This document shows, piece by piece, positions 9,482-32,154 of a DNA stretch of 36,542 bases. Below the pieces are notes generated by a model. It saw only the letters and a program-made list of their open reading frames with translations. It was not told the origin of the DNA and made no database searches. Within the stretch, counting starts at the first letter, position 1. Each line of letters begins with the position of its first letter. The stretch comes from Anaerolineae bacterium (GTDB taxonomy: Bacteria > Chloroflexota > Anaerolineae > Aggregatilineales > Phototrophicaceae), in the NCBI GenBank assembly GCA_013821665.1, contig JACDGI010000009.1:1-36542 (forward strand), in the 5' to 3' direction. The position numbers and the translations under genes were made by a program.

Positions 9482-9750
9482 GAGTTCGCAATCAAGAGCT
9501 AACTCGTCTAACAAAATGAATGACCGCTCCTCAAAGCTAAAGCTATAGGGTTTACGGCATCTTCTGGATAATATATGATCAAAACCACAGGTATTGTCAA
9601 ATTCAACATTTTTTGAAATCTAAACTAAAATGGGTTGCAAGACTACAACATGAGGTTGAAATAGGTTAGTAATCCTAAATGATATATCTACCTGTTACGG
9701 TCTATAATTCATAGAATGTTCACGAATATTTTGATAAGTCCATAAAGATT

Positions 9751-10734
9751 ATGACACAAACCCAACCATTTGTGAGTGTAGGGTTGCCGATTTACAATGC
9801 GGAACCATTGGTTCGACGAGCCATTGATACACTTCTGGCGCAAGATTATGCTAACTTTGAACTCATCATTTGCGATAATTCCTCAACAGATGGTACATGG
9901 AACATTTGCCAAGAATACCAGTCTAAGGATTCTCGTATACGGCTTTATAAAAATCCGACCAACATAGGCGCTAGTGCCAACTTTGAACAGGTATTTTCGC
10001 TCGCAAAAGGAGAATATTTTGCATGGGCCGCACATGATGATTACTGGGAGCCTTCTTTTATTAGTAAGTGCGTTGCCAAATTGGAAGCAGTGCCTCAAAG
10101 TCCTCTCTGCCATGTTTTACATGTAGAGGTTGATGAAGCAATAGGGGATTCTAGGGCAATAAATTACCTTGTTAACTTAGACTACGGTTCTGTCTGGGAG
10201 CGAACCTATAGCTTGCTTACTGCCTGGCCGATGCCAAATGTCTACATTTATGGCCTGTTTCGCCGCGAAATGCTCAGCAAAATCATGCCAGTGGTGAATA
10301 TCACGGGTGGTGATACGATACTACTGCTTAAGGCGGTGCAGCTTGGGGTTATTGTAGGTGTCGATGAACCGCTCCATAAATACTCAGTTGGACGCAGGGG
10401 ACGAGGTTTGCGGCTGTATATCCGGCAGTTTGCACCCAACATTAGCCCTTGGCAAACACTCACGTGGGACTGGCAGCTCTTTTTTAGATTGTCGAAGCTA
10501 TCACAAGTCGGTGTACCGAACTTAAGCGCACGTTTACGGAGTGTATACGCCGCTGCTGCCTTGGTACATCGTTACACTGGCTGGCCTCTGTCAGCAAAGT
10601 CGATTCTCAATGTTCTTTATATTCTCATGCCTGAGTCAATGGCTGCTGGTCTGCGACGGTGGCTTGAAAATCATAATCGTGTTGAAAAAATGATTATGCG
10701 TCTAGTTAATAATCAAAAAGCACTTGCGGAATAA
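9751..10734 (+). CDS. Glycosyltransferase family 2
   Basis: VSVGLPIYNAEPLVRRAIDTLLAQDYANFELIICDNSSTDGT...FAWAAHDDYW GT-A motifs. Confidence 0.9.
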   Translation: MTQTQPFVSVGLPIYNAEPLVRRAIDTLLAQDYANFELIICDNSSTDGTWNICQEYQSKDSRIRLYKNPTNIGASANFEQVFSLAKGEYFAWAAHDDYWEPSFISKCVAKLEAVPQSPLCHVLHVEVDEAIGDSRAINYLVNLDYGSVWERTYSLLTAWPMPNVYIYGLFRREMLSKIMPVVNITGGDTILLLKAVQLGVIVGVDEPLHKYSVGRRGRGLRLYIRQFAPNISPWQTLTWDWQLFFRLSKLSQVGVPNLSARLRSVYAAAALVHRYTGWPLSAKSILNVLYILMPESMAAGLRRWLENHNRVEKMIMRLVNNQKALAE

Positions 10735-10771
10735 GCATTAAAGAAAGTTTGGGCGGTTTAGGTAAAAAGCT

Positions 10772-11557
10772 ATGACAAACTACACACCTAAAGTTGTTAT
10801 TCTTGCCGGGGGGCTTGGAACACGTTTAGCTGAAGAAACTGAACTTAAGCCAAAACCGATGATTGAAATTGGGGGGTATCCAATTATCTGGCATATTATG
10901 AAATATTATGCCCATTATGGTTTCAACGAGTTTTTCGTTGCACTTGGTTACAAAGGACATGTCATTAAACGATATTTTCAAGACTATTATACGCTGTCAA
11001 GAAATATGACAGTTAACCTGCAAACCGGTAAGACGGAATTCCATGACCAGAAGAGCGAGGATTGGATGGTCCATTTGATTGATACAGGGCAAAATACATT
11101 GACAGGTGGGCGTGTCAAACGTCTACAACCCTGGCTACAAGATGGAACATTCATGGTGACCTATGGTGATGGGGTCAGCAATATTGACCTCGCGGCGTTA
11201 TTGCGTTTTCATCAGTCGCATGGTCGTCTTGCGACTGTGACGGCTGTCCGACCGCCAGCTCGCTTTGGAGGAATTAGCTTTGAAGGCGAAGCCGTCAAAC
11301 AATTCGTCGAAAAGCCGCAGATTGGTGAAGGTTGGATTAACGGCGGGTTTTTAGTTTGTGAACCCGGAATATTTGATTATCTTGAGGGGGATTCAACAAA
11401 TTTTGAGGCAATAACCTTGGAAAAATTGGCATCTGCTGGTGAGCTTATGGCTTATAAGCATGATGACTTTTGGCAATGCATGGATACGCTTCGTGATTAT
11501 CGGCTATTAGAATCCCTGTGGCAACAGGACAATCCACCGTGGAAAATATGGGAGTAG
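10772..11557 (+). CDS. rfbF: Glucose-1-phosphate cytidylyltransferase
   Basis: [55 protein letters not shown] signature. Confidence 0.92.
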
Positions 11558-12549
11558 TCGTGGACGATTATAATACTTTTTGGCAAGACAGGGCCGTATT
11601 TGTCACAGGAGCGACTGGCCTTGTAGGGTCGTGGGTTGTACGTCGTCTACTCATGCTGGGTGCGGATGTGGTTTGTTTGGTGCGTGATTGGGTACCGCAA
11701 AGTGAATTGGTGCAGCATAATTTAATTGATCGAGTGAAAGTGGTTCGCGGTGATGTAACGAATCAAGCTCTACTGGAGCGTATTTTAGGTGAATATGAGA
11801 TAAGTACGGTTATTCATCTTGCGGCTCAGACGATTGTAGGAATTGCAAATCGTAACCCGATTTCTACTTTTGAAACCAATATAGCGGGTACTTGGGCCTT
11901 GCTCGAGGCCTGTCGTCACACCCCTACAATCAAACAAATCGTGCTGGCATCATCAGACAAAGCATATGGCGATCATGATCAGCTTCCATATACCGAATCA
12001 ACCCCACTGCAAGGTAAACATCCTTACGATGTTAGCAAATCATGCGCTGATTTGATTGCTCAAAGTTATTTCGTTACGTATGGTTTGCCCGTCACTATCA
12101 CCCGATGTGGGAATTTTTACGGTGGAGGCGATCTTAATTGGAATCGAATTGTTCCGGGCACTATTCGATCAGTATTACGAGGGCAGCATCCCGTAATCCG
12201 ATCTAAGGGCGACTCAATTCGTGACTACTTTTATGTAGAGGATGGTGCCTTAGCATATACACTCTTGGTCGAAAAAATGGCGCAAGACCCCTCTATACAT
12301 GGACAAGCTTTTAACTTCTCTAACGAGATACAAGTAACTGTAGTTGAATTGGTGGGATATATTTTGCGACTTATGCAATCGGATTTGGAACCTAACATAC
12401 TCAATCAGGCCAGTAATGAAATCTTGCATCAATATCTTAGTGCTGCACATGCGCGCGATCTTCTCAGTTGGCAACCTTCCTTTTCACTTGAAGAGGGCTT
12501 AAGCAAAACAATAGCTTGGTATAAACAATTCATGGTCAATTCCATATGA
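11548..12549 (+). CDS. rfbG: CDP-glucose 4,6-dehydratase
   Basis: [38 protein letters not shown] Rossmann motif; YxxSK as [10 protein letters not shown]. Start taken at ATG 11548 overlapping rfbF. Confidence 0.88.
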
Positions 12550-13784
12550 GCAACTCACCAATTACTTGTAGATCATGTGGCAATCCGAATCTACAATTGA
12601 TTTTGTCATTAGGCAAAACACCGCTGGCCAATGCGCTGCTCCGTCCGGAACAATTGGATCAACTAGAAGAAACGTATCCTTTGGATCTCGTTTTTTGCCC
12701 TGTATGTACGCTCGTTCAGATTACTGAAACCGTTCCACCGGAAAAGCTGTTCAGCGAGTATCTGTATTTTTCTTCTTTCTCAGATACGATGCTAAAACAT
12801 GCCCAGACTCTAGTGAATAAAGTAATCCCTAAGTATCAATTAACTGATAACAGTCGGGTGATAGAAATTGCTAGTAATGATGGGTATCTCCTTCAATACT
12901 ACAAAGAGAAAAATATCCCTGTATTGGGAATTGAACCTGCTACAAATATTGCCAAAGTTGCCCAAGAAGAACGGGGTATAGAAACGATTTGTGCCTTTTT
13001 CAACACTGAAATGGCTCAACAATTACACAGTCGTGGACAGTTGGCTGACATCGTGCATTGCCATAATGTATTGGCGCATGTCGCGGATTTAAATGGCTTT
13101 GTAAAGGGCGTGGAAATTGTTTTGCGCGATAATGGCACTGCGATTATTGAAGCCCCTTACATCAAGCCGCTTATTAGCCACAACGAGTTCGACACAATTT
13201 ACCATGAGCATTTGTGTTATTTCTCACTCACGGCCCTTGATAAGCTGTTTCAACGGCATGGATTGACTATTTATGATGTTGAACTGCTTGCTATTCATGG
13301 CGGTTCTTTGAGATTATTTGCCGGCAAAACGGGTTCAAATACTTTGCGACAACAATCAGTTAAATCACTTTTAGAAGAAGAAGCTGCTTGGGGCGTAGGG
13401 AATTTTGAGTTCTACCAGAATTTTGGTCAACAGGTAGAGATGCTCAAAACACGCCTCCAAGTTTTCCTGAAAGATCTGAAATCTAAAGGAAACCACATTG
13501 CGGCTTATGGGGCATCTGCCAAAGGCAGTACGTTACTCAATTATTTTGGGATTGATAACCAACTGCTGGATTATGTTGTGGATCGAAGTACACACAAGCA
13601 GGGCTATTATACTCCGGGCACACATCTTCCAATCTATGCGCCGGAAAAATTGTTAGAAACGATGCCCAATTATGTCCTCCTACTAACGTGGAATTTCGCT
13701 GAGGAAATCCTACAGCAGCAATCAGCCTATCGAGAACAAGGTGGCAAGTTCATTATTCCCATCCCTGACATTCAGGTATTGTAA
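12546..13784 (+). CDS. SAM-dependent C-methyltransferase (NDP-sugar C-methyltransferase family)
   Basis: N-terminal CRSCGN...[13 protein letters not shown]...FCPVCTLVQ zinc-binding-like domain, [18 protein letters not shown] motif, [21 protein letters not shown]-terminal [16 protein letters not shown] domain. Confidence 0.85.
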
Positions 13785-14311
13785 TGATTTTCAGAGAGAC
13801 ATTGCTGTCTGGTGCATTCGTTATTGAGCCTAGTCTCATTGAGGACGAACGCGGATTTTTCACACGTACTTTCGACCAGCACGCATTTGAAGAGCGGAAC
13901 TTAAATCCGTGCATCGTACAATGCAATATCTCCTTTAATAAAAAAGCCGGAACGCTGCGTGGGATGCATTACCAAGCCGCACCCCATGAAGAAACCAAGC
14001 TGGTTCGCTGCACGATGGGGGCAGTTTACGACGTTATCATTGATCTGCGCCCGGATTCGTTGACATTTAAGCAATGGTTTGCTGTGGAGTTGTCCGCCTT
14101 GAATCGGTTTATGTTGTATATCCCCAAGGGATTTGCACATGGCTTCCAGACACTTTTGGATGGCACAGAAGTTTTCTATCAAATGGGAACGTTTTACCAA
14201 CCCGAAGCGGCTCGGGGTGTATGCTGGGATGATGAGGCATTTCAGATAGAATGGCCTCTACCGATTACGCTTATGTCAGATAATGATCGAAACTATGCTA
14301 GGTTGCAATAA
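13784..14311 (+). CDS. dTDP-4-dehydrorhamnose 3,5-epimerase family protein
   Basis: DERGFFTRTFDQHAFEE...GTLRGMHYQAAPHEETKLVRCTMGAVYDVIIDLRPDS...YIPKGFAHGFQTL RmlC-family signature. Confidence 0.9.
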   Translation: MIFRETLLSGAFVIEPSLIEDERGFFTRTFDQHAFEERNLNPCIVQCNISFNKKAGTLRGMHYQAAPHEETKLVRCTMGAVYDVIIDLRPDSLTFKQWFAVELSALNRFMLYIPKGFAHGFQTLLDGTEVFYQMGTFYQPEAARGVCWDDEAFQIEWPLPITLMSDNDRNYARLQ

Positions 14312-14343
14312 ATGCCGAATGTAAGGCACTAAGGAGTGTGAAC

Positions 14344-15192
14344 ATGAGTAACACATCATTGCTAACGTCTGATCAAGTTAAAGAATTCAAGGAAAACGGT
14401 GTTCTGGTTGTTAAGGATTTCTATAATGCTCAGAATGAGATTGAGCCGATTCAACGTGCAATTCACGGCATAATCCGAATCATTATTGAAAAGTATGGCT
14501 TTCCCGTCATCCAAGCACCTTTTACACCTGAAACATTTGACAGCGGTTATCAAGAAATTATTGCGCTCAATCGGGCAACAGGTGGCGAGATCTATGATGC
14601 TGTCAAGCAAATTCCTGCTTTTATTCGACTAGTCTCCAATGAACGCCACGATTTCCTAACTTGCCAACTGCGGGATACGGCTTTGCCCGGTATTGCGGCA
14701 GGTGGTTACGGCATACGTATTGATAATCCTAATGAAGAAAAATTCCGAGCTGTGTGGCATCAAGAATATCCCTCACAACTGCGAAGCCTCGATGGATTGG
14801 TGTTTTGGAGTTCTCTCGTTGACGTTACACAGGATATTGGGCCAGTCATTTTCTGTCTAGGATCCCATACAAAAGGATTGGTGCGCGTTCATACGAAAGA
14901 TCCGCGTAACCCCGAGAAAACCTCCGCTTATGCTCTTGTACTGGAAAATGAAGAAGCTCTGGTTGCGAGTTACCCTCAAGTAGCGCCACTCACCAATCCG
15001 GGGGATTTGGTAATTATTGATTTCTTGACCCTCCATGCTTCAGGTGTCAACGTTGGTCATCGTTCACGTTGGACTATGCAGACACGCTACTTCACTTTTA
15101 CGGAGTCTACAGGCGTTAAAATTGGTTGGAAAGGCTCTTTTGCTGCCGGAATCAAATTCAGTGATGTCCATCCAGAACTCATCGTTGACTGA
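14344..15192 (+). CDS. Phytanoyl-CoA dioxygenase (PhyH)-like Fe(II)/2OG oxygenase
   Basis: WHQEYPSQLRSLDGLVFWSSLVD...GPVIFCLGSHTKG...GDLVIIDFLTLHASGVN facial-triad-like pattern. ATG 14344 preceded by AAGGAG. Confidence 0.7.
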   Translation: MSNTSLLTSDQVKEFKENGVLVVKDFYNAQNEIEPIQRAIHGIIRIIIEKYGFPVIQAPFTPETFDSGYQEIIALNRATGGEIYDAVKQIPAFIRLVSNERHDFLTCQLRDTALPGIAAGGYGIRIDNPNEEKFRAVWHQEYPSQLRSLDGLVFWSSLVDVTQDIGPVIFCLGSHTKGLVRVHTKDPRNPEKTSAYALVLENEEALVASYPQVAPLTNPGDLVIIDFLTLHASGVNVGHRSRWTMQTRYFTFTESTGVKIGWKGSFAAGIKFSDVHPELIVD

Positions 15193-16343
15193 TGGCAACG
15201 CTTCAATACTGCAATATCTGTAATCAGGCGTTGGGTGAGCCGGTATACGTGTCTCCGAGGAATATTTCGGTCACATCGAATGCGGATATAGTTCCGATTC
15301 CCACTCAGGTTTATTTTTGTGAAACTTGTGGGCATTTAGAAACGCCGCCATTCGATAATTTAGAATCGTACTATGACACTGGGTACAACATCCTGATTGA
15401 CAGTGACGATGAGGATCAACTTTATCAATCAGTAGACGGACAAAAAGCTTTCCGGGCCGATTTTCAGCTTGAAACGCTGCTGAAAAAACAAACTATTCCA
15501 ATGGATTCTAAGATATTGGATTTTGGGAGTGGGAAGGGGACGACGCTCCGCCGATTAGCTCTACGTCGTCCCGATATTGCCTATTCCCTTTTTGATGTCA
15601 GCCAAGCCTATGTACCGTTCTGGGAGAAGTTTGCTACACCCGATCAGTGGGCAACTTACACACTGCCAGAAAGATGGAATGAGAATTTTGATCTAGTCAT
15701 CTCATTTTATGTTCTGGAGCATGTGGCTGAACTGCGCGAGATTGTAAAGAATATCGTGCGGGTTCTAAAACCGGGCGGAAAGTTTTATTTTCTTGTACCC
15801 AATGTCTATGCCAACATTGGCGATTTTGTCGTCGTAGATCATGTCAATCACTTTTCGGAAAATTCAATTTATCACTTGCTTGAGAGCAGCGAACTATCCG
15901 TCGTTGAAATTGACACGAAGACTCATGATTCAGCCTTCATTGTCACTGCTCAGAAAAAACCAGCAATAGAAAAGCGAAATTTAGAAATTGCTCCATTAAC
16001 CCAGCGGGTTAATCAAATAAGCGAATACTGGAACACTGTGGTTGAGCGTGTACAGGTTTTTGAAACAAAGCATGTGAATGAACCAGTTGCAATCTATGGA
16101 GCCGGCTTTTATGGCACTTATATTGCAACTTGTTTGAGAAACTTATCGTGGGTACAGTGCTTTATAGATCAGAATCCCTACAAGCAAAATGAAAAGGTGT
16201 TGGATAAACCGATAATTGTCCCGGATGATTTGCAAGAAAATATTAAGATCATTTATGTGGGGCTAAATCCCCGTAAAGCGGTTACCACCATCGGCGCAAT
16301 TTCGACGTGGTCTGAGCGCGGCCACACCTATTTTTTCCTATAG
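15192..16343 (+). CDS. Class I SAM-dependent methyltransferase with zinc-binding N-terminus
   Basis: YCNICNQ...YFCETCGH zinc ligands, ILDFGSGKGTTLRRLA SAM motif, FDLVISFYVLEHVAEL, C-terminal AIYGAGFYGTYIATCL domain. Confidence 0.8.
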   Translation: MATLQYCNICNQALGEPVYVSPRNISVTSNADIVPIPTQVYFCETCGHLETPPFDNLESYYDTGYNILIDSDDEDQLYQSVDGQKAFRADFQLETLLKKQTIPMDSKILDFGSGKGTTLRRLALRRPDIAYSLFDVSQAYVPFWEKFATPDQWATYTLPERWNENFDLVISFYVLEHVAELREIVKNIVRVLKPGGKFYFLVPNVYANIGDFVVVDHVNHFSENSIYHLLESSELSVVEIDTKTHDSAFIVTAQKKPAIEKRNLEIAPLTQRVNQISEYWNTVVERVQVFETKHVNEPVAIYGAGFYGTYIATCLRNLSWVQCFIDQNPYKQNEKVLDKPIIVPDDLQENIKIIYVGLNPRKAVTTIGAISTWSERGHTYFFL

Positions 16344-16348
16344 AGAGA

Positions 16349-16873
16349 TTGATTTCCATGTTAAGCGGTTCTCAGGTTATATTGCGCGCTCCAACTGAGG
16401 CAGATTGGGTTTTCTTCTATAACCTACGAAATGATTTTGAATCTCAGTTGTTGTTGATGTCTTTGCCGCGAGCTAACACAATGGCAAGAGTTCAACAATG
16501 GATACATATTATTCTTGATGATCCGGCCAGTGTTTTTTTTGTAATTGCCGATACAGACAATAGTGAGGCGCTAGGATTTGTGCAGGTACGGGGGATGAAC
16601 TTTATTCATGGTACCGGCGAGCTTGGTATTTACATGGACGCAAAAGTGCGCGGCAATGGCTCGACCTCTGAGGCATTGCAGATACTCGAACAATACTTGA
16701 GCGATGTGTTTAAACTACGGAAACTGACATTAGAGGTACTCGCAATCAATAAACGAGCAATTGGGTTTTATTTGAAATCGGGCTGGAGGCAGGTTGGAGT
16801 ATTGACAGCTCATTTTTATCAAAAGCAGAATTATCAGGATGTAGTCTTGATGGAGAAGTTTTTAGAGCCATGA
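16349..16873 (+). CDS. GNAT family N-acetyltransferase
   Basis: VILRAPTEADW...ELGIYMDAKVRGNGSTSEALQILEQYLSDVFKLRKLTLEVLAINKRAIGFYLKSGWRQVG. Confidence 0.85.
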   Translation: MISMLSGSQVILRAPTEADWVFFYNLRNDFESQLLLMSLPRANTMARVQQWIHIILDDPASVFFVIADTDNSEALGFVQVRGMNFIHGTGELGIYMDAKVRGNGSTSEALQILEQYLSDVFKLRKLTLEVLAINKRAIGFYLKSGWRQVGVLTAHFYQKQNYQDVVLMEKFLEP

Positions 16874-17586
16874 AAAAGGTTGTCATTTCTCAACCCATGT
16901 TTTTTCCTTGGGTGGGTATGCTCGAACAGATCAAACTGTCTGATGTCTACATCTACTATGATGACGTTCAATTTTCTAAAGGCAGTTTTACTAATCGTGT
17001 TCAGATTAAGACCGCCGATGGATTCAAATGGTTGACCGTCCCGGTTAATATTGAGTTTGGGCAGACAATCCGTGAGGTAAGAGCGGATGAACGTCACGAT
17101 TGGCGAACAAAACATCTGGCATTTTTGGAGCAAACCTATCGTGATGCACCATTTGTACGCGAGATGCTAACATTGGTGCAAACTGTTTACGAACGTCCGC
17201 TGGAAACCATCGCCGAGATTTCGATCGCCAGCACACAGTCACTGTGTACTTATTTTGATCTAACCAACACCACAGAATTTATGGTTTCATCAACCTTAAA
17301 TATTGGTGGTCACGGTAGCAGGCGTGTACTGGATATCGTAAGACATGTCGCTGGTGATATCTATATCACGGGACATGGAGCAAAAGATTATCTTGAACAT
17401 TCTTTATTCGAGGATCATCAGGTTCGGGTAGAATATATGGATTATGAAAAACGAGCTTATCCCCAGCTATACGGCTCATTTACCCCCTACCTTTCTGCAC
17501 TCGATCTGGCTGCCAATCTCGGTAGAGAAGGCCGCAATGTCATTACTTCCGCATCAATCTACTGGAGGGAGTTTCTCAACCAATGA
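16870..17586 (+). CDS. WbqC family protein
   Basis: VVISQPMFFPWVGMLEQIKLSDVYIYYDDVQFSKGSFTNRVQIKTADGFKWLTVPV is the WbqC signature. Confidence 0.92.
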   Translation: MKKVVISQPMFFPWVGMLEQIKLSDVYIYYDDVQFSKGSFTNRVQIKTADGFKWLTVPVNIEFGQTIREVRADERHDWRTKHLAFLEQTYRDAPFVREMLTLVQTVYERPLETIAEISIASTQSLCTYFDLTNTTEFMVSSTLNIGGHGSRRVLDIVRHVAGDIYITGHGAKDYLEHSLFEDHQVRVEYMDYEKRAYPQLYGSFTPYLSALDLAANLGREGRNVITSASIYWREFLNQ

Positions 17587-18320
17587 ACAAAATTGACGAG
17601 TTTTTTGCCGAGGTTAGTCAAAACATAGAACGTCTAGGTAACGATCATGATTTACAGGGTCTAGGCCGTATTTTGCTGCGTGAGATGACCCGCTATAAAT
17701 ATAGTTACAACTTTACTTGGATGGGGCGACCCATGATTCAACTTCCCCAAGATGTCATAGCCATGCAGGAAATCATCTGGAAGGCTCGACCTGATCTTAT
17801 AGTTGAAACAGGTGTTGCACATGGCGGGTCGATCATATTTTATGCTTCCATGCTGGAATTATTGGGTGGGGAAGGGCGAGTCGTCGGTGTGGATATTGAT
17901 ATTCGACCTCATAATCGGGTCGAAATTGAAAATCACCCTATGTCAAAACGGATTTCCCTTGTGGAGGGATCGTCTATAGACACTCAAGTTATTCAAAAGG
18001 TTCGAGAATTGGCGGTCAACAGCAAGAAGGTGTTGGTCATTCTGGACTCCAATCATACACATGAACATGTACTACAAGAATTAGAACTTTATTCACCTTT
18101 GGTCACGCAGGGCAGTTACGTGGTTGTCTTCGATACACTGATTGAAGATATACCGGATGAATTTTTCGATGATCGCCCATGGGGCAAGGGCAATAACCCC
18201 AAGACTGCTGCACAGGAATTTCTGAAAACCAATGATCGTTTTGAAATTGACCGCGCTATCTCGGATAAACTCCTGATTACGGTTGCGCCTGAAGGCTATT
18301 TGCGATGCATAAAGGACTAA
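17583..18320 (+). CDS. Cephalosporin hydroxylase (CmcI)-family putative methyltransferase
   Basis: RPDLIVETGVAHGGSIIFYASMLELLGGEGRVVGVDIDIRPHNR...VLVILDSNHTHEHVLQELELYSPLVTQGSYVVVFDT is characteristic. Confidence 0.88.
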   Translation: MNKIDEFFAEVSQNIERLGNDHDLQGLGRILLREMTRYKYSYNFTWMGRPMIQLPQDVIAMQEIIWKARPDLIVETGVAHGGSIIFYASMLELLGGEGRVVGVDIDIRPHNRVEIENHPMSKRISLVEGSSIDTQVIQKVRELAVNSKKVLVILDSNHTHEHVLQELELYSPLVTQGSYVVVFDTLIEDIPDEFFDDRPWGKGNNPKTAAQEFLKTNDRFEIDRAISDKLLITVAPEGYLRCIKD

Positions 18321-18325
18321 ATAGC

Positions 18326-19453
18326 ATGGAACATATTTATGTCTCTGGTCCATCGATAACGGAAAAAGAAATTAAGTACGTTACCGATGCTGTGACCAAC
18401 GCTTGGTACGGTAATGCTAACATCTTCAATAAGCGGTTTGAGGAAGCGTTTGCCGCTTATCACGGTATGAAATTTGCGGTCGCACTACCGTCGTGTACTG
18501 CTGCTATTCATTTGGCGCTACTCGCACTTGATGTTCATGAAGGTGATGAAGTCATTGTTCCTGAACTGACGTGGATTGCTTCGTCCGCCCCCATAAGCTA
18601 TGTTGGAGCAACACCCATTTTCGCTGATGTAGATGCGAAAACATGGTGCTTATCCGCGGAGTCCTTCGAGCAGTGCATTACACCGCGCACAAAAGCAGTT
18701 ATCACTGTTGATTTGTACGGCAACATACCTGACATGGATGCCATTCGAACAATTGCAAAACAACACGGGATTGCCATCATTGAAGATGCAGCGGAAGCTG
18801 TGGGAGCAAGTTATAAGGGGTGTAAAGCAGGTAGCTTGGGAGATATAGGCGTTTTTAGTTTTCATGGATCGAAAACTTTAACGACTGGTGAGGGCGGTAT
18901 GCTTATCACCAATGATGACGCACTTTATGAGCGTGTTGTGCTTTATCGTGATCATGGTCGTCGTCCCGGTGACAAAATGTTTTGGAACCATGAGGTTGGC
19001 TATAAATATAAAATGAGCAGCTTGCAAGCCGCACTTGGTCTTGCTCAATTGGAGCGGATTGATGAGCTTGTGGAACGCAAGAGAGAAATATTTTCTCATT
19101 ATGCCGCTCAATTGTCTGGTGTTTCAGGAATTACGCTCAATTATGAAGCATCCGATACCAAAAACGCGTATTGGATGGTCACAGCGATTTTGGACAGCGA
19201 TTTCGGACTCGATAAGGAAATGCTGAGTGTCGCTATGGCAAAGCGGAATATTGACACTCGACCATTCTTTTACCCCTTAAGTTCCATACCAGCTTATTCC
19301 GATACTCCAGAAGCACAAGGGACGATTGATCGCAATCCAGTGAGCTATCGTATAAGTCCTTATGGTATCAACCTACCATGCGGTATGGATATGACTGAGG
19401 AAAAAATCAAATACGTATGTGACTCTCTTAAAGAATGTCTTAATCTGCAATAA
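18326..19453 (+). CDS. DegT/DnrJ/EryC1/StrS-family PLP-dependent sugar aminotransferase
   Basis: ALPSCTAAIHLALLALDVHEGDEVIVPELTWIASSAPISYVGATPIFADVD...IIEDAAEAVGASYKG...FSFHGSKTLTTGEGGML (PLP lysine in HGSK). Confidence 0.92.
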   Translation: MEHIYVSGPSITEKEIKYVTDAVTNAWYGNANIFNKRFEEAFAAYHGMKFAVALPSCTAAIHLALLALDVHEGDEVIVPELTWIASSAPISYVGATPIFADVDAKTWCLSAESFEQCITPRTKAVITVDLYGNIPDMDAIRTIAKQHGIAIIEDAAEAVGASYKGCKAGSLGDIGVFSFHGSKTLTTGEGGMLITNDDALYERVVLYRDHGRRPGDKMFWNHEVGYKYKMSSLQAALGLAQLERIDELVERKREIFSHYAAQLSGVSGITLNYEASDTKNAYWMVTAILDSDFGLDKEMLSVAMAKRNIDTRPFFYPLSSIPAYSDTPEAQGTIDRNPVSYRISPYGINLPCGMDMTEEKIKYVCDSLKECLNLQ

Positions 19454-19741: not shown

Positions 19742-19784
19742 CCCCGTTCCTCTCCTGTTCCAAGTGTCCCTAAAAGTGTACTTC

Positions 19785-19860
19785 TTGAGACATGCCGAAA
19801 TGATGTCTCAATTCATGTCTCGTGCTATATTTCTCGCAAGGTTTAAGACTTTAGGAGACA
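19785..19860. promoter_or_regulatory. res-like resolvase recognition region
   Basis: TTGAGACAT-GCCGAAATG-ATGTCTCAA (19785-19811), further ATGTCTCG (19815-19822) and GAGACA (19855-19860), between divergent tnpA' and tnpR' remnants. Confidence 0.55.
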
Positions 19861-20052: not shown

Positions 20053-20138
20053 ATGTCTCATAAAGTTTTGAGTAATTTGAGAAAAACTGCCAAAAGGCAT
20101 TTTAAGATATGAATTGAGACACGATTTTCGCGTGTCTC
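20053..20138. repeat. Second cluster of TGTCTC/GAGACA repeats (res-like)
   Basis: ATGTCTCA (20053-20060) and GAGACACG-ATTTTCG-CGTGTCTC (20116-20138). Confidence 0.4.
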
Positions 20139-20235
20139 GCCAAGTATGAGCAGCAAAAGTAGGGGAAGTCGCTTCATTATGTAAAATAAGCTACAATGCC
20201 AAATGCGTTGGAAATAACATCGTCGAGTTTGAGTA

Positions 20236-20805
20236 ATGCACGTTTTCATCAGTTATAAACGTGAAGAAGAAGCCTTTGCACGTCGCCTGCATGATGAGGT
20301 CGAAAGCTGGGGCTTCGAGCCTTGGCTCGATGTGCTCAACATTCAACAGGGCGAAGAATGGGATCATGCCATCCATGCAGGCATGAGAGCCGCCGAAATC
20401 GTCATCGGTGTATTGACCCCTGCAAGCCTCACCAGCAAAAACGTTTTGGACGAATGGGGTTATGCCCTTTCAACCGACAAACGATTATTCCTACTTTGGC
20501 TGCAAAATGTACCGGAGCTTGACATTCCTCCACGTTACATCCGTATCCAGAGGATAGATTGTCGCCGCAATCTAGACGACGGTATAGCAATTCTTCAACG
20601 CGCCCTGCAATCTGCCGCCAAGATCGTTCCGGTTCCTGAACCGGTTGACGTTGCCGATACCCTAAATGTCGCACAGAATTCAGTCATTACAGAAGAATTG
20701 CCCCAGCCGGCAAAAGCCGAACCTATCGTCCCAGTTATTGAACCGCTTTCCCCACAAACCAGAACCAACCGCGAACGCATGTTGGAAAAAGTGCAGATTT
20801 TCTGA
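20236..20805 (+). CDS. TIR domain fragment
   Basis: HVFISYKREEEAFARRLHDEVESWGFEPWLDVLNIQQGEEWDHAIHAGMRAAEIVIGVLTPASLTSKNVLDEWGYALS is a TIR domain including a candidate catalytic Glu region (DEWGYAL). Confidence 0.88.
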   Translation: MHVFISYKREEEAFARRLHDEVESWGFEPWLDVLNIQQGEEWDHAIHAGMRAAEIVIGVLTPASLTSKNVLDEWGYALSTDKRLFLLWLQNVPELDIPPRYIRIQRIDCRRNLDDGIAILQRALQSAAKIVPVPEPVDVADTLNVAQNSVITEELPQPAKAEPIVPVIEPLSPQTRTNRERMLEKVQIF

Positions 20806-20853
20806 GTCAAGGGCGTACTGGAGCAGTCCGTTCATGGTGCCGCACTCATTGAG

Positions 20854-23325
20854 TTGGGACTCCAATCGCAGCAGGCTTCGGTGGAGAACCCTTGGGATAC
20901 TGTTTTTCAGAACACCGATTATGGGGACTATCGTTTGCCCACAGGCACCAAAATTGGTGAGGTCTACAAAGATCTAAATGGTGCATTGCTGATCCTCGGC
21001 GATCCCGGTTCTGGCAAAACCACCACCCTGATTGAACTCTGCCGCGATATGATTGAAGTCGCTGAAAATGACGATGCCGAACCCATTCCAGTAATCTTTA
21101 ATCTGTCCTCATGGGCCGACGAACGCAAACCTTTGGCCGGTTGGCTGCAAGACGAACTTGTCACCAAATATCAGGTGCCGCTCAAAGTCGCACAGGATTG
21201 GCTAGAAGCCAACGCGCTCCTACTGCTGCTCGACGGCTTAGATGAGGTTGATAGCCGTTATCGTGATGACTGTGTAAACGCCATCAATGCCTTTCGCTCG
21301 GAGTATGGTTTTACGCGGCTGGTGGTATGCAGCCGCATTGCCGACTATGAGGCACTTACTAATCGCCTCAACTTGAACGGTGCGATTGTCTTACAACCCT
21401 TGGACGACACACAGGTTGACCATTACCTTGCTACCCTTGGCGCGGATATGCAGGGCGTTCGCACAGCCATGTCCGCTGACAGCAGCCTGCGAAAACTGGG
21501 CGATTCACCCCTTATGTTGAGTATCATGACCATAGCATTTCGCGGACTAACCGCCGCTGATTTGCCGCAGTTGGATACAGTTGAAGCCCAGCGCAAACGC
21601 CTCTTTGAATCCTATACCAACCGCATGTTCGAGCGCCGCAAGAGCAACTGGTATTCACCTGAAAAAACCTTACATTATCTCAAGTGGTTGGCAGGCCGCA
21701 TGGTCGAACGCAAGCAGTCGGTCTTTTATATCGAAAACTTACAGGTTGACTGGATTGCCGACGAACGCCGCCGCCGTCTCTACCGGATCGTCGGACGTAC
21801 CAGCTTTGGCGTGCTGGCTGGCGCGGTAGTTGGGGCGTTGGCAGGCCTTGCCACCCTTTTACTGGCCTTTCTCGGCAGCTTCACCATTCGATATTCGACA
21901 CCCGGCAATGTACTGGCTGGAGCATTGCTGTTTATACTCGTACCTGCCGCCATAGGTGGACTGATCTTCGGGACTGCGGGTATTCAAGCTTACGCGCTGG
22001 ATACGCTTCCCGACTCCTTCCAATCCCTAAGCCATTTCATCTGGCGCTTTGCTAATGTGGTCATAGCTGGCACGCTCTTTGGTTTGATCGCTACCGTGTT
22101 AACCTTGCTTACGTTTGCGATCATTGCATTGCTCACAAACACCATGCATCTTTCGGAAAGCGTATTCTATCGGGCAGGCAATAATCAAAGTGTAACGGGC
22201 TTGGCCGCGCTCTTGCTCTATGGTGTGGTCTTTTTCGCAATAGGCGGCGGTTTGGGAGCTTTTACCGGAGCCGTGACCGCGTATATTGCTGCGGTTGTCA
22301 ATATTGTGCAGCCCCGCCGCCAATTGCTACTGGGAGTCATGATATCTGGTCTATTAGGACTGATAATCACTTTAAGTGTAATCGCGATTTGTCTCGCCTC
22401 ATTAAGACTCTTGTATACAGTTCAAAATGATGTCTACTATTCAACCACTAGCCTGCCCGCCCTCATTCTAGCAGGCGCTATCGCGAGCGTTCTACTTGCA
22501 ATTGCGGTCCGTTTTATACCGGCGCGGTTCAAAGCCGCACCCTATATATTGCTCTTGGCTGGGCTATCGGTCTACGGCGCTATGGCGCTCACTTTATCTA
22601 GCCCAATGCAGTTAACCACCGAAACAGGGGTAGTAGGTATCATCCTAACGCTGATCTGCGCAGTGGCAGGTCTTGTAATAGCCCGCATCACCGATAAAGT
22701 TGAAAGTGCCGAGGCTTTACGCTGGAGGTGGAGTTGGCGCTGGTCATTGCTGGGTCTGGCGGGAATGGTAGCACTCGGCTTATTTCAAAGTTTAAGTGTG
22801 CTCAGTTATGCGACCAGTTATACACGAACGCAGGAAGCAAGTTACACCCAACAGTACATTAAGCCTGCTCAAGAAATCGTAAATATCCTTCAACCGCAGC
22901 TCGACCAATTCCGAACACAATGGGAGTCTTACCGCTCGCAATATGCCGATTTTGATGGCATCAGCACTCTAATTACCCGCAAGGTCATTCTCGACTCAAA
23001 AATACGATTTCATGATGGGCATAAAACCGATCCTCAAGCTCCCACGTGGGATGATCTGGATCAATATACGAACTACGCATGGTATGGTCATTTTACTCAA
23101 AAATATGAACTATATACTCAAGCCCCTCAACCCTCTTTTGCGTGGCAAACGGGTTCTTCATATCCTTGGCCAATCGGCCCGAATGAATATCCGGACGTAC
23201 AAAAGCAGCTTCAAGAAGTCGATCAAAAACTCGCTGGCTATAAACTCACAGATGCCCAGATACAAAAATTATCCGACACTCAGTATGCGATTCTTCGCCG
23301 TGATGATCTGATTACACTGACATAA
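20854..23325 (+). CDS. NACHT NTPase plus multi-pass membrane region fragment
   Basis: Walker A LLILGDPGSGKTTTLIELC, Walker B ALLLLLDGLDEVDSRY, VVCSRIADYEAL, then several hydrophobic helices. Confidence 0.88.
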   Translation: MGLQSQQASVENPWDTVFQNTDYGDYRLPTGTKIGEVYKDLNGALLILGDPGSGKTTTLIELCRDMIEVAENDDAEPIPVIFNLSSWADERKPLAGWLQDELVTKYQVPLKVAQDWLEANALLLLLDGLDEVDSRYRDDCVNAINAFRSEYGFTRLVVCSRIADYEALTNRLNLNGAIVLQPLDDTQVDHYLATLGADMQGVRTAMSADSSLRKLGDSPLMLSIMTIAFRGLTAADLPQLDTVEAQRKRLFESYTNRMFERRKSNWYSPEKTLHYLKWLAGRMVERKQSVFYIENLQVDWIADERRRRLYRIVGRTSFGVLAGAVVGALAGLATLLLAFLGSFTIRYSTPGNVLAGALLFILVPAAIGGLIFGTAGIQAYALDTLPDSFQSLSHFIWRFANVVIAGTLFGLIATVLTLLTFAIIALLTNTMHLSESVFYRAGNNQSVTGLAALLLYGVVFFAIGGGLGAFTGAVTAYIAAVVNIVQPRRQLLLGVMISGLLGLIITLSVIAICLASLRLLYTVQNDVYYSTTSLPALILAGAIASVLLAIAVRFIPARFKAAPYILLLAGLSVYGAMALTLSSPMQLTTETGVVGIILTLICAVAGLVIARITDKVESAEALRWRWSWRWSLLGLAGMVALGLFQSLSVLSYATSYTRTQEASYTQQYIKPAQEIVNILQPQLDQFRTQWESYRSQYADFDGISTLITRKVILDSKIRFHDGHKTDPQAPTWDDLDQYTNYAWYGHFTQKYELYTQAPQPSFAWQTGSSYPWPIGPNEYPDVQKQLQEVDQKLAGYKLTDAQIQKLSDTQYAILRRDDLITLT

Positions 23326-23409
23326 ACCACCATCCGCAACGCGCGCGAACGCTACACACAAGATGGCATCCGCGAGAGCTTCGTTCGTGTTATCCGTCTG
23401 ACCCTCGTT

Positions 23410-23904
23410 TTGGGTTTTTCTCTCGTCGTTATCGGCGGCGTAGCAGGCGGCCTCCGCAAAGCCGAAACCGTTGAAATCCGCACCCATCCCAACGAAGGCA
23501 TTCGCAGCACTCTGCGTACTGCTATCCGTGTCATGATCGCCTTTGGTCTGGTTGGTGCATTAGTCGGGGGTCTTATCGGTTGGCTGCTCAGCACTTTGCC
23601 CAATGGGGATTTTGAAGCATCAGCACAGATAAAAAGTGTAATCGTACTCTTCACGCTCATCATTGGTCTCATGAGCGGACTTGGACTCGGCCTAATCATG
23701 GGCGGCAGTGACGCCGTCGTTAAACACTATGTTCTGCGCTTCTTCCTCCAGCGTGCTGGCAGCATCCCCCGCAACTATGCCCGCCTGCTCGACTATGCTG
23801 CCGACCGCATCTTGCTCCGTAAAGTCGGTGGCGGCTATATCTTCATTCATCGCTATCTGCTCGAATACTTTGCAAGTCTTGAACCCAACATCTTTAAAGA
23901 ATAG
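23410..23904 (+). CDS. C-terminal membrane portion of the TIR-NACHT protein
   Basis: Same frame as the upstream fragments; ends YARLLDYAADRILLRKVGGGYIFIHRYLLEYFASL, typical of the C-terminus of membrane NACHT proteins. Confidence 0.65.
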   Translation: MGFSLVVIGGVAGGLRKAETVEIRTHPNEGIRSTLRTAIRVMIAFGLVGALVGGLIGWLLSTLPNGDFEASAQIKSVIVLFTLIIGLMSGLGLGLIMGGSDAVVKHYVLRFFLQRAGSIPRNYARLLDYAADRILLRKVGGGYIFIHRYLLEYFASLEPNIFKE

Positions 23905-24055
23905 AAATGCTAGGCTGTTATGGGTCGTGAACTCAATACATATAATAACCCTCATTTGACCCATCACAAACTTCCGATTAAGCCTGAATAAATTCTGTAA
24001 AGCGGGGTTATCGTGAGTTATTTAGGTCTTGTAAATGAGGCTTATCAGGAGTTAT

Positions 24056-25981
24056 TTAGCTATTCTTTATTTGGTAGCTATGAACCGCACCATCATATAA
24101 AAACAACTGATTATCCTTGCCCCATTCCAAGAGGTAAGGCAGTGTCGCGAACTCATCCATATTCAACAGTGCCTGACCACTCGCCGCATCCATAATAGTT
24201 GTGTGGTCAACCGTTGGATTACTCACCGCCAATAGATTACCGCCCCTATTTATATCGAACCAGATGAGTGGCGCGGGATTGATCGGTTCAATCGGCCCAC
24301 TTGCTGCAACAGCATCCGCTTCGGCGTCATTCAGATGCCATCGCCATAACATGCCCGCACCCGTAAAACCAATTAACCCTGAGCTGTCAGCTAACCATCG
24401 GAAAGTCTCATCAGGCTCCAGTCGGAAGGACCCCATATACGGTAGCTTGACGGTTATCGTGACATCTTTTTGCACATCCCACACGTCGATCTGAGCCCGC
24501 GTCACTTCCACGTCTTCACTCGGTCGATTGTACTTGTAAAATGCAATCCGCTTCCCATCCGGACTCCACAGAACGTCTATCAAACCTTCAACATCGTGGG
24601 TGGTTGTCGACACCTCCCCTGTTTTTGCATCCACAAAGCGCACGGGTACCTTATCTAACCCTGTGTAGCGGGACATCACCGCCAGTTTGCCATCCGGCGA
24701 CCAGCTAAAGCGGTCTACATCTTCCACCTCAATCGGTACTTGGTCAGCATCCTTTTGTATCTGCCAGATGACCAGAGTTGAGCCGCTGAAAGCCAATTGC
24801 TCTCCGGATGGACTCCAACCCAATTGGCTGCCCTCGAGTGGACGCGGCAGGTTCAAGGTTTTTTCGAGGTTGCCAGTTACCGTATCAACCACTAAAACGT
24901 CATAGCTATTTTTATAATAGAGCGCGATCAACTTCCCATCGGGGCTGACCGCCATAGCCTTCAAATATTCTGTAAAAGCCTTGCTTTCACCCACGACGGA
25001 ATACTGCACTATATTCCAAACCTCCAGATGATGTTCGCGGTCAAGTATCGCTAATTGATCGCCGTGCCATGCCAGATGTTCGATCAGATCAAAATACGGC
25101 GCATTGTTGGCAGAGTACAATATCGTTATTTGATCCGTCGCGATATTCCAGATTTTGATGCTGCCGTCGACAAGTGCACCCGCTATTTGGTTACTATCAT
25201 CATTCCATGCAATCTCCCGTGCAAAATGGGCATCAAACGAGCCTTTGACGCGCTCAAAAGTGTCGGTCTGCCATATATTTAACGGCACGTCACCCAAAAG
25301 GGTAACAGCCAATTTGTGACCATCGTGGCTCCAAACCACAGCATGGATATTGGCTGTATCCGCAGTAAATTCTTTTATCGGTTTGTGCGTCGTCATATCT
25401 TGAATCACGATTTCGCCGTTAGCCAACCCGATTGCCAAAAGATTGCCATCCGGGTTCCAGCTTAAAGTGACCACATTCGCGGAATATGTACCCACCACCT
25501 CGGTTTGTTTTCCGCTGTGGCTGTCCCATAATATGACCCTATTTTGCTTTCCCTCCAGATCGGAAAGCGCCAGCACATCACCTTTCGGTTGCCATGCCAT
25601 AACAAGCGCACCAATATACGGCGATGACACCTTGACTTCCCCTGTTTTCACATCGATGACACGAAAAATAGCATCGCCGTTCAAGGTAGCAATCCGCGTG
25701 CCATCCTGGTTGCTTCTGACGCCTTGTGCAACAGCAATGCCTTGATCTAACCGAATCAGAGGTTGTTTGAAGGTGGCATCGGTTAACCACAAACCCGTAT
25801 TGGTTGCCAGAATGAGATTTTGGCCGACCCAATCAAAGTCATAGATGGTCCCTTGCCCGAACTGCCACAACGTTTCAGCCTCAAGCGTGGATTGGTTTTG
25901 CGCATGGGGGTGCGTTACTAAGTTGAGGCTAACTAAGCTCAGTAGCAGTGCAACGAGGCTGGATAATCGCCAATTACTCAT
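24056..25981 (-). CDS. Secreted WD40-repeat beta-propeller protein
   Basis: Signal peptide SLVALLLSLVSLNLVTHPHA; repeated WSPDGKxLA...V(I)xxWD/W motifs through 641 aa. Confidence 0.85.
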   Translation of the reverse strand: MSNWRLSSLVALLLSLVSLNLVTHPHAQNQSTLEAETLWQFGQGTIYDFDWVGQNLILATNTGLWLTDATFKQPLIRLDQGIAVAQGVRSNQDGTRIATLNGDAIFRVIDVKTGEVKVSSPYIGALVMAWQPKGDVLALSDLEGKQNRVILWDSHSGKQTEVVGTYSANVVTLSWNPDGNLLAIGLANGEIVIQDMTTHKPIKEFTADTANIHAVVWSHDGHKLAVTLLGDVPLNIWQTDTFERVKGSFDAHFAREIAWNDDSNQIAGALVDGSIKIWNIATDQITILYSANNAPYFDLIEHLAWHGDQLAILDREHHLEVWNIVQYSVVGESKAFTEYLKAMAVSPDGKLIALYYKNSYDVLVVDTVTGNLEKTLNLPRPLEGSQLGWSPSGEQLAFSGSTLVIWQIQKDADQVPIEVEDVDRFSWSPDGKLAVMSRYTGLDKVPVRFVDAKTGEVSTTTHDVEGLIDVLWSPDGKRIAFYKYNRPSEDVEVTRAQIDVWDVQKDVTITVKLPYMGSFRLEPDETFRWLADSSGLIGFTGAGMLWRWHLNDAEADAVAASGPIEPINPAPLIWFDINRGGNLLAVSNPTVDHTTIMDAASGQALLNMDEFATLPYLLEWGKDNQLFLYDGAVHSYQIKNS

Positions 25982-28585: not shown

Positions 28586-29080
28586 CTTTTATATTATTTA
28601 ACACTAGGTAGAGGTAATAGTTGCAACTTTAGTAAAATACTCAACAGCTTTTGGCAGACTAATTATTTGCATCTCTCTCAAAAACGTTGGTTTTCTGGAG
28701 ACTTCATAGTCCCTTCCTTTCAATTCATCTCCATATTTAATCCCTTAAAACTGTGTCTTGAAACCTTCCCCAGTTGCTTCCAAATATAAGATCAAGATTG
28801 ACGTTTTTGACCCTAAAATAGGTGACGAAAATAAGCAGGGAAATCTTCTCACATACCCAGCATATAATCCGCCATATACGATGCCAATCGAGATGTTTTG
28901 GAGTCAGTATAGGTAACTACAATAACCGTGCTATATTTCGATCAATGAAGAGGGCATGTAAATCGAGGTTATCGTGACTTATTTCCCCATGAAATGGGTT
29001 CATACAGCAGATATTACGCTGAGATCTTGCCAAGCTTCTGACAAGATCCCAGCCAGAATCATTGGGGCAGATTTTTCGAT

Positions 29081-29772: not shown

Positions 29773-32154
29773 ATGATGGTCGCCAAAACTTCATTTGGTC
29801 AGTGGCTCAAGCGGCGTCGCAAAGTCTTTGATCTCACACGGGATGATCTCGCAAGCCGCATCGGCTGTGCCGCTGTCACGATTACAAAAATTGAGGCGGA
29901 TGAGCGCCGACCCTCTAAACAGATGGCTGCACTCCTCGCTGAACATTTACACATCCCGCCCGATGAAATCGCCACGTTCATAAACTTCGCCAGAACCGAG
30001 GGCGCAATATCAACAGCACCTTGGGGTACGCCGTTTCATTCTCCTACCAACCTACTTGAGCAACCCACGCTACTTATCGGTCGAGACGAGGATGTAACCG
30101 TCATAAGTAAACAGTTGCTCCAGCCTGAATCGCGTTTACTCACCTTCGTCGGCCCACCGGGGATTGGCAAAACACGCCTGGCATTGCAAGTGTCTCGCGT
30201 GGTGTTGGATAAATTTGTCGACGGCGTGTTCTTCATTTCGCTTGCGACAATCAACGATGCCGATCTGGTGATCGCGACAATTGCGAATACACTTGGCATA
30301 CCGGATGTTGGCCCACAAACGTCATTAGAGCGTTTGAAAGCCTTTTTACGCGACAAACAGACCTTGCTTGTATTGGATAACTTCGAGCAAATTCTGGCAG
30401 CAGCTCCGCCAATCGCTGAACTCCTCGCCGGATGCTCATTGCTCAAAATTCTCGTCACCAGCCGGGCACCACTGCGTATCCGCCAAGAACGACAGTTGCC
30501 TATTGCTGCGCTTGCCTTGCCTGATCTCGCCCATCTGCCCGATGTTGAAACTGTTGCTCATTACTCTGCCGTTACCCTCTTTCTCGAACGGGCGCAGGCG
30601 GTAAAGCCGGATTTTTCGCTCACTGAGGATAATGCGCCAACTGTAGCGGCCATCTGCACCCGGCTAGATGGATTACCGCTGGCGATTGAATTGATCTCGG
30701 CGCGGGTCAAACTGCTTTCCCCGGCGGCGCTGTTAGAACGATTGCATGGGCGGCTGATGTTGCAATCCGATGGGCTGCGGGACATTGAGCCGCGCCACCG
30801 GACGCTGAATGCCGCCATTGACTGGAGCTATCAACTCTTGAGCACAGAAGAACAAATCCTGTTCCTGCGATTGGGGGTATTTGTCGGCGGTTGGACGCTA
30901 GAGGCAGCAGAGGCGATCTGTAGCGAAAATTTGAATCTTAATATTCTTGATGGCCTAGCATCCTTGCTGGACAAGAATCTGATTAAACAGAATGAGCGTT
31001 TTACGATGCTCCAGACGATCCGCGAGTATGCGCTGGAACGATTGGCATCAAGTGGAGAACCGGATAATTTGCGCCAGCACCATGCCGAGTATTTCACAGC
31101 CTTCGCCGAACACATCGAGGCATATCATGCACGCTGGGCGAATAATATGGAAACAGAGCATGATAATTTGCGGGCAGCATTAGCATGGGGCGAAACCGGG
31201 CTGCGACTAGCGGTGGCGCTGGGCATATTCTGGCAGCAGCGAGGTCACTTGAGCGAGGGGAGCGCTTGGCTGACCGAGGGGCTAATGCGGCAAGACATTG
31301 GGACATTGACGGTAGCAGATCGTAGACTTCGGGCAAGTGCATTCGGCTGGCTTGGTACATTGCAGGCGTGGCAGGGTGACTTAGACGCGGCTCAGTCAAG
31401 TCATGAGGAAAACGTGGCACTCTTTCGAGAACTTGGGGATCAAGCAGGACTGGTCGAAGCGCTGCAAACATACGGTATGCTATTCATTATGCGCGGCGAC
31501 CCTGAACACGCTGGTCCTCCCTTAGAGGAGAGCTTAGCCCTCGCTCACAAAATTAGGGATGCAGCCTCCGTCGCTCAATCCCTCTTCTTCTCAGGTATTC
31601 TGGAGTATTTACAGGGTTACGTCCAGCAGGCGAGTGCACTCTGGGAAGAGAGCTTAGCGCTCCGCCGACCCGAGGGCAATCAATGGTTCATCGCGATTGT
31701 ACTGGCTCATCTGGCAATGGCGGCTATTGATGAGAGCAATTATAGGCGAGCGACGAGTCAACTGGCCGAGAGCTTGACCCTCTTGCGGACAATAAGCGAA
31801 AAATGGCAGACTGCCCACACGCTAGAAGTCATCGCATGTCTGGCTGCTATGCAAGGGCATTTCCTCCGAGCCGCACACATTTTCGGCGCGGCAAGGAGAC
31901 TTCGGGAAATTCATAGCATCCCCATGTTATCGTTTCTACAGAAATTCTATGAACGAGGCGTTGCTACCCTCCGCGCTCAACTTGACGAGGCAACATTAGC
32001 CACAGCGTGGGCGGAAGGACGAGCAATGACACTGGAGCAAGTCGTCGCATATGCCCTTCAGAACGACACTTCACCCACCGAAATTCCACTCATCCCAGAG
32101 GTTCGTGCTGCCGGCCCATTTTATGATCACATCATTGGTGGCGTTTCAGACTAA
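29773..32154 (+). CDS. XRE-family HTH plus STAND ATPase plus TPR-like regulator
   Basis: SFGQWLKRRRKVFDLTRDDLASRIGCAAVTITKIEADERRPS HTH; FVGPPGIGKTRLALQV Walker A; QTLLVLDNFEQIL Walker B; LDGLPLAIELISARVKLL; C-terminal helical repeats. Confidence 0.9.
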   Translation: MMVAKTSFGQWLKRRRKVFDLTRDDLASRIGCAAVTITKIEADERRPSKQMAALLAEHLHIPPDEIATFINFARTEGAISTAPWGTPFHSPTNLLEQPTLLIGRDEDVTVISKQLLQPESRLLTFVGPPGIGKTRLALQVSRVVLDKFVDGVFFISLATINDADLVIATIANTLGIPDVGPQTSLERLKAFLRDKQTLLVLDNFEQILAAAPPIAELLAGCSLLKILVTSRAPLRIRQERQLPIAALALPDLAHLPDVETVAHYSAVTLFLERAQAVKPDFSLTEDNAPTVAAICTRLDGLPLAIELISARVKLLSPAALLERLHGRLMLQSDGLRDIEPRHRTLNAAIDWSYQLLSTEEQILFLRLGVFVGGWTLEAAEAICSENLNLNILDGLASLLDKNLIKQNERFTMLQTIREYALERLASSGEPDNLRQHHAEYFTAFAEHIEAYHARWANNMETEHDNLRAALAWGETGLRLAVALGIFWQQRGHLSEGSAWLTEGLMRQDIGTLTVADRRLRASAFGWLGTLQAWQGDLDAAQSSHEENVALFRELGDQAGLVEALQTYGMLFIMRGDPEHAGPPLEESLALAHKIRDAASVAQSLFFSGILEYLQGYVQQASALWEESLALRRPEGNQWFIAIVLAHLAMAAIDESNYRRATSQLAESLTLLRTISEKWQTAHTLEVIACLAAMQGHFLRAAHIFGAARRLREIHSIPMLSFLQKFYERGVATLRAQLDEATLATAWAEGRAMTLEQVVAYALQNDTSPTEIPLIPEVRAAGPFYDHIIGGVSD

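What the first reader, a model, noticed from the sequence alone, without database searches (positions are those of the whole stretch)
20236..23904. TIR-NACHT-membrane protein in one uninterrupted frame except for two nonsense codons (TGA and TAA)
All three ORFs are in the same frame and no indel is needed to join them. Across the first stop the frame reads ...NRERMLEKVQIF-TGA-VKGVLEQSVHGAALIELGLQ..., where a Trp codon (TGG to TGA) would give FWVKGVLEQS, which I recall as a common linker style in membrane NACHT proteins. Across the second it reads ...DDLITLT-TAA-TTIRNARERYTQDGIRESFVRVIRLTL... Keeping an open frame over 3.6 kb with only two point stops suggests very recent inactivation, readthrough, or function as split TIR / NACHT-TM / C-terminal polypeptides. 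A TIR NADase effector separated from its NACHT sensor would be an unusual arrangement for an NLR-like immune protein.
Basis: partly seen in the sequence, partly recalled or inferred. Interest (0 to 1): 0.75.

Follow-up and report, generated by a model that had tools for sequence, protein, structure and literature searches.

The report
Broken TIR-NACHT membrane immune-type gene
This is a bacterial gene for a membrane-anchored, NLR-like immune-type protein that has been cut by two stop codons; its relatives are intact single proteins, so it is most likely an ordinary, fairly recent broken gene (or an assembly error) rather than a new split immune system.

Summary
Window 20236-23904 (+) is one reading frame, interrupted only by TGA (20803-20805) and TAA (23323-23325), with no indel. 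It encodes TIR, NACHT, a polytopic membrane region and a conserved C-terminal tail. The window is a contig of an 8.1 Mb, fragmented Chloroflexota (Anaerolineae-type) MAG.

Relatives are intact single frames. The TGA sits on a near-invariant Trp: 30/30 in members not selected on it, 97/98 overall. That Trp lies inside the first helix of the NACHT module, not in a linker. The TAA lies near the end of a ~190-residue loop, nearly all of it found only in this copy, so no homologous column exists. Catalytic and NTPase motifs are intact and coding signal continues through all segments. No suppressor tRNA and no distinctive restart site were found.

Best reading: a recently disrupted STAND immune-type gene that can still make only a TIR fragment. 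Assembly or strain-mixture error is the main rival and cannot be excluded without reads. Functional splitting or readthrough is unlikely. One further TIR-NACHT gene in the same GTDB family also carries an in-frame stop between TIR and NACHT, at a different place, so such breaks recur sporadically. New member of a known kind; low interest.

The parts
20236..20805 (+). TIR-domain ORF (189 aa) ending at the premature TGA; the only segment with a normal ATG start
   Evidence: TIR_2 PF13676 E=4.6e-22; start MHVFISYK aligns with MQVFISYK/MEVFISYK of relatives
20452..20454 (+). GAA, residue E73, equivalent of the TIR NADase catalytic glutamate; intact
   Evidence: invariant E73 in alignment A4; aligned with the Glu of the TIR chain 8qlo_A
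20767..20832 (+). First conserved helix of the NACHT module (NRERMLEKVQIF-stop-VKGVLEQS)
   Evidence: predicted helix with pLDDT above 90 at its start
20803..20805 (+). Premature TGA at a near-invariant Trp column (W190)
   Evidence: Trp in 30/30 profile-found and 67/68 pattern-found members with a residue there
20989..21021 (+). Walker A / P-loop (LILGDPGSGKT), intact
   Evidence: invariant columns; NACHT PF05729
21226..21249 (+). Walker B (LLDGLDEV), intact
21799..22806 (+). First part of the polytopic transmembrane region
   Evidence: hydropathy; helices in the predicted model, partly low confidence
22807..23373 (+). ~190-residue polar loop between two TM helices, inferred extracytoplasmic; the nearest relative has about 20 residues here
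   Evidence: only its last residues match relatives among 154 order-level genomes, one weak hit apart; relative L068
23323..23325 (+). Second premature stop, TAA, near the end of the loop
23374..23709 (+). Last TM helices
23773..23874 (+). Conserved C-terminal helix / beta-hairpin / helix (NYARLLDYAADRILLRKVGGGYIFIHRYLLEYFA), winged-helix-like end of the STAND core
   Evidence: present in 73 of 79 genome contigs members in the same frame as NACHT; predicted helix-hairpin-helix, pLDDT about 86-95

Best explanation
The locus is a disrupted (pseudogenised) member of a large family of membrane-embedded STAND/NACHT proteins with exchangeable N-terminal effectors, here a TIR NADase-type domain. In intact members the likely mechanism (inferred) is: the membrane region or its extracytoplasmic loop senses a signal, the NACHT core exchanges nucleotide and oligomerises, and the clustered TIR domains hydrolyse NAD+, stopping growth of the infected cell. 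In this copy two nonsense mutations cut the protein: TGA on a structural Trp inside the first NACHT-module helix, and TAA in the loop. Only the 189-aa TIR fragment, without its sensor, is expected to be translated. Shown here: architecture, intactness of relatives, Trp at the TGA column, intact motifs, continuing coding signal, absence of indels. Inferred: that the stops are real in the organism, that inactivation is recent, and the defence role.
For: Relatives are single open frames. Trp at the TGA column in 97/98 members, 30/30 in those not selected on it. An intact paralogue exists in the same genome (G000:C627, 961 aa, TIR+NACHT+TM). Motifs intact and only one substitution at 40 near-invariant core columns besides the stop. 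In-frame coding signal equal to intact genes. No distinctive restart site. No stop-reading tRNA found. Interrupted family members occur elsewhere: UBA6055 / G122 TIR-TAG-NACHT, frameshifted L220 and L221. The recognisable neighbouring genes on this contig are full length, and both stops fall in this one gene.
Against: No reads are available, so base-call or strain-mixture errors are not excluded. Under neutral decay two nonsense mutations imply about 39 missense ones (19.4 per nonsense) and probably some indels; no indel is seen, so the gene must be very young as a pseudogene, or the stops are errors. The core-column test has little power (about 1.3 hits expected). No ortholog closer than about 55% identity was found in the collections searched, so dN/dS could not be measured.
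Confidence: 0.64

Rival explanations
1. Assembly, polishing or strain-mixture error: the gene is intact in the living population and the two stops are consensus artefacts of a fragmented MAG.
For: 1025 contigs, completeness 88, contamination 6.48; all motifs intact, no indels, coding signal unbroken; TGA replaces a near-invariant Trp by a single base change.
Against: Two separate substitution errors in one gene while the recognisable other genes on the contig read through full length; if errors were random, the chance that the second also fell in this gene is roughly its share of coding sequence, about one eighth (my estimate).
Confidence: 0.23
2. The truncated TIR protein alone is retained and functional as a standalone TIR protein, the rest being debris.
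For: The 189-aa ORF keeps its own start, the whole TIR domain and the catalytic Glu; the genome carries 42 TIR_2 matches, several in short frames.
Against: The downstream frame is not decayed, so there has been little time for such a role to be selected; no relative shows a stop at this place.
Confidence: 0.07
3. Functional split or programmed readthrough: TIR, NACHT-TM and C-terminal parts are made as separate chains or joined by stop bypass.
For: Unbroken frame; one other TIR-NACHT gene in the same GTDB family (G122 = UBA6055) also has an in-frame stop (TAG) between TIR and NACHT.
Against: Stops are at non-equivalent places; the TGA removes a near-invariant Trp inside the NACHT module; no ATG before the P-loop and no distinctive ribosome site after either stop; no suppressor tRNA found; TAA is the stop least prone to readthrough (general knowledge); 11 of 13 TIR-NACHT matches in the family have no stop inside the match.
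Confidence: 0.05
4. Alternative genetic code (TGA = Trp) in this organism.
For: Trp is expected at the TGA.
Against: Other genes on the contig end at TGA; TAA would also have to be recoded; tRNA-Trp has anticodon CCA and none with TCA was found.
Confidence: 0.01

Closest known systems
Bacterial NACHT (bNACHT) anti-phage proteins (PMC12169576 and the work it cites)
   Same: Central NACHT module with an N-terminal effector and C-terminal sensor side; NLR-like logic
   Different: The bNACHT proteins described there have nuclease effectors or none recognised and SNaCT / NCH1 C-termini; here the effector is TIR and a polytopic membrane region sits between the NACHT core and a conserved C-terminal tail. 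No anti-phage test of this family was found in the papers I read.
TIR chain of PDB 8qlo/8qlp (from memory: the SPARTA short-Argonaute system) and other bacterial TIR NADase effectors
   Same: TIR fold and catalytic Glu position align
   Different: SPARTA TIR is activated by an Argonaute partner (from memory); here TIR is fused to NACHT, and in this copy cut off from it
Animal NLRs NOD2 / NLRC4
   Same: The predicted model of an intact relative matches them best among solved structures (E about 1.6e-7)
   Different: Low sequence identity (13-17%); membrane helices lie inside the chain instead of a C-terminal LRR
Intact family members L077, L078, L135, L079 (Chloroflexota MAGs)
   Same: TIR-NACHT-TM-tail in the same order, about 40-48% identity
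   Different: Uninterrupted; they lack the ~190-residue loop and the extra TM helices of the window copy

Membership tests
TIR_2 domain proteins (PF13676) | Match above the Pfam gathering score | tested here: met
   79.2 bits against cut-off 28
TIR NADase | Catalytic Glu at the conserved position | tested here: met
   E73 invariant in A4 and aligned with 8qlo
TIR NADase | NAD+ hydrolysis | not testable with these tools
   needs biochemistry
NACHT / STAND NTPases (PF05729) | NACHT match above gathering score with Walker A and B | tested here: met
   32 bits against 26.7; motifs invariant
Membrane NACHT family defined here (Trp helix - NACHT - TM bundle - GGGYIFxHRxLLExF tail) | All elements in one continuous open frame | tested here: not met
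   interrupted by TGA and TAA; met by 73 of 79 relatives from the NACHT core to the tail
Membrane NACHT family defined here | Trp in the first module helix | tested here: not met
   TGA in its place; Trp in 97/98 others
Pseudogene | Premature stops in a gene intact in relatives | tested here: met
Pseudogene | Relaxed selection (dN/dS near 1) | not tested
   nearest relative about 55% identical over the best stretch; synonymous sites expected to be saturated
Pseudogene | Stops present in the organism's DNA | not testable with these tools
   no reads held
Anti-phage defence system | Protection against phage | not testable with these tools
   PADLOC gives only partial TIR and NTPase matches

The most novel reading that the evidence does not exclude
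In-frame stops between TIR and NACHT recur in this family (window TGA; UBA6055 TAG) because separating the NADase from its sensor, reversibly by point mutation or by low-level readthrough, is selected as a way to silence or free the effector.
Probability: 0.05. Interest if true: 0.6.

Novelty: new member of a known kind. Interest (0 to 1): 0.2.

Why it matters
As a locus it is mostly a caution: an open frame across a stop does not make a split immune system. It does point to a widespread, effector-swapping, membrane-embedded NACHT family (Chloroflexota, Cyanobacteria, Chlorobi, ANME and related archaea; effectors TIR, Ser/Thr kinase, CHAT, others) that looks like an NLR with a membrane or extracellular sensor and that gave only partial hits in the defence libraries used here. 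It also gives two examples of TIR-NACHT genes broken while otherwise intact, as expected if such suicide-type genes are costly.

Tried and rejected
Alternative code or suppressor tRNA (none). Restart sites after the stops (none distinctive). Natural TIR / NACHT separation as the family norm (14 of 81 members have the TIR fused in frame; 3 have a TIR in an upstream frame, of which L116 is the same gene broken by TAG, while L081 and L083 carry more distant TIR genes in another frame). Extra 'stops inside' reported for G263 and G218 were checked and lie upstream of the true starts. Searching IMG/VR for a closer relative found nothing. Plasmid records gave only distant relatives covering the NACHT part. 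RNA families in the window: none. DGR or programmed variation: not pursued. A first tail-motif script was wrong and was redone. dN/dS abandoned for lack of a close ortholog.

Full report
Observation. Translation of window 20236-23904 gives TIR (189 aa), TGA, 839 codons, TAA, 192 codons, final TAG, all in one frame with no indel. Pfam finds TIR_2 (4.6e-22) and NACHT (1.3e-7). The contig is G000:C670 of an 8.13 Mb, 1025-contig assembly. Relatives with readable record titles are Anaerolineae and other Chloroflexota MAGs. A 1-kb piece of this gene occurs only once in the genome.

Relatives. A search of related genomes found many homologues, nearly all reported without stops. Reading the best ones shows single open frames of about 740-1050 aa: TIR-NACHT-TM (L003, L005, L008-L013, L016, L017), Ser/Thr kinase-NACHT-TM (L004, L006, L007, L014, L069), and NACHT-TM without an effector that begins just before the conserved helix (L068, MSNNRQQMIENVRRFWIDGVL...). 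A scan of 84,980 species genomes returned 79 loci in Chloroflexota, Cyanobacteria, Chlorobi, archaea and others. In 73 of 79 members the frame runs from the NACHT core to the tail GGGYIFxHRxLLExF. All 51 rows of one family alignment match NACHT and 13 match TIR_2.

First stop. The TGA column is Trp in 97 of 98 distinct members with a residue there. Because the scan pattern itself contained this Trp, the unbiased set is the 30 of 30 found by whole-genome search. The one exception is a diverged duplicate in L099. The residue lies in the first helix of the NACHT module, predicted with high confidence, so the stop is inside a folded unit and not at a domain boundary.

Second stop. The TAA is in a polar stretch of about 190 residues between two TM helices. 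Matches to this region in 154 order-level genomes begin only after the stop, apart from one weak hit, and the nearest relative has about 20 residues there (L068). No ancestral residue can therefore be named. By comparison with the compact relative, whose model shows pairs of TM helices alternating with short strands, the loop is inferred to face away from the NACHT side. The same comparison suggests that the STAND core is completed by the C-terminal helix-hairpin-helix after the membrane region. Foldseek matches the model to NOD2 and NLRC4, consistent with but not proof of this.

State of the gene. Motifs are intact: TIR E73, Walker A, Walker B, CSR. At 40 near-invariant core columns the window departs at two, one of them the stop; 57 of 94 relatives depart at none and 18 at one. 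In-frame codon scores are normal in every segment. With this sequence's codons, neutral drift gives 19.4 missense and 7.5 synonymous changes per nonsense, so two stops under long neutrality imply about 39 missense changes and probably some indels. The lack of indels argues for very recent loss or for artefact, but the column test has little power.

Could it still work? After the TGA the in-frame starts are TTG 20854, GTG 20881, TTG 20935 and TTG 20986; the first ATG (21049) is after the P-loop, and none has a distinctive ribosome-binding site. All tRNA anticodons found are ordinary; Trp is CCA (assembly 88% complete). Some genes on the contig end in TGA. Readthrough, recoding and functional restart are therefore unlikely. 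The TIR fragment itself can be made.

How unusual is the break? In the same GTDB family 13 TIR-NACHT matches were found. Besides the window, one (G122:C4, the same gene as L116 from UBA6055) has an in-frame TAG between TIR and NACHT, about 50 codons upstream of the NACHT module. Elsewhere in the class two members are frameshifted. Stops reported for G263 and G218 proved to lie upstream of the genes; one reported for G829 was not examined. Sporadic breakage is thus a low but real background in this family. Among the rest of this genome's 16 NACHT and 42 TIR matches none has a stop inside the matched stretch, and an intact TIR-NACHT-TM paralogue exists.

Verdict. Observation confirmed; a disrupted member of a known kind of NLR-like protein. 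Real pseudogene 0.64, assembly or strain artefact 0.23, retained TIR fragment 0.07, split or readthrough 0.05, recoding 0.01. The defence role and the sensing mechanism are inferences from family knowledge, not shown here.

Noticed in passing
L003-L017, L068-L070, L074-L152, L220: A widespread membrane-embedded NACHT family with exchangeable N-terminal effectors (TIR, Ser/Thr kinase, CHAT-like, a response-regulator-like domain, none), a near-invariant Trp in its first helix and a GGGYIFxHRxLLExF tail after a TM bundle; only partial hits in PADLOC and NCBIfam.
   Followed up: partly
L116 5982-8500 (same gene as L255, G122:C4): A second TIR-NACHT gene with an in-frame stop (TAG) between TIR and NACHT; runs of N interrupt its repetitive TM region.
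   Followed up: partly
window 22807-23373: A ~190-residue polar, inferred extracytoplasmic loop in this copy, mostly without detectable relatives; a candidate sensor domain.
   Followed up: partly
window 23996-24063 and 28957-28990: A 34-nt repeat (two tandem copies and one about 4.9 kb away) flanking a WD40 gene, an rve-type transposase pair and a DUF4760 gene; possibly a mobile unit next to the broken gene.
   Followed up: no
window 19779-19820 and 20105-20146: 42-nt inverted repeat arms (79% complementary) just upstream of the TIR start.
   Followed up: no
window 29773-32154: HTH-NB-ARC-TPR STAND protein, intact, about 6 kb downstream of the broken gene.
   Followed up: no
window 8051-19453: Surface polysaccharide cluster (glycosyltransferase, nucleotidyltransferase, epimerase, dTDP-sugar isomerase, methyltransferases, WbqC, DegT aminotransferase), all intact.
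   Followed up: no
L099 5998-9780: Two tandem NACHT-TM genes; the first is diverged and is the only member with a different residue (Gln) at the Trp column.
   Followed up: no
G000 whole genome: 42 TIR_2 and 16 NACHT matches in one assembly: a genome very rich in immune-type genes.
   Followed up: no
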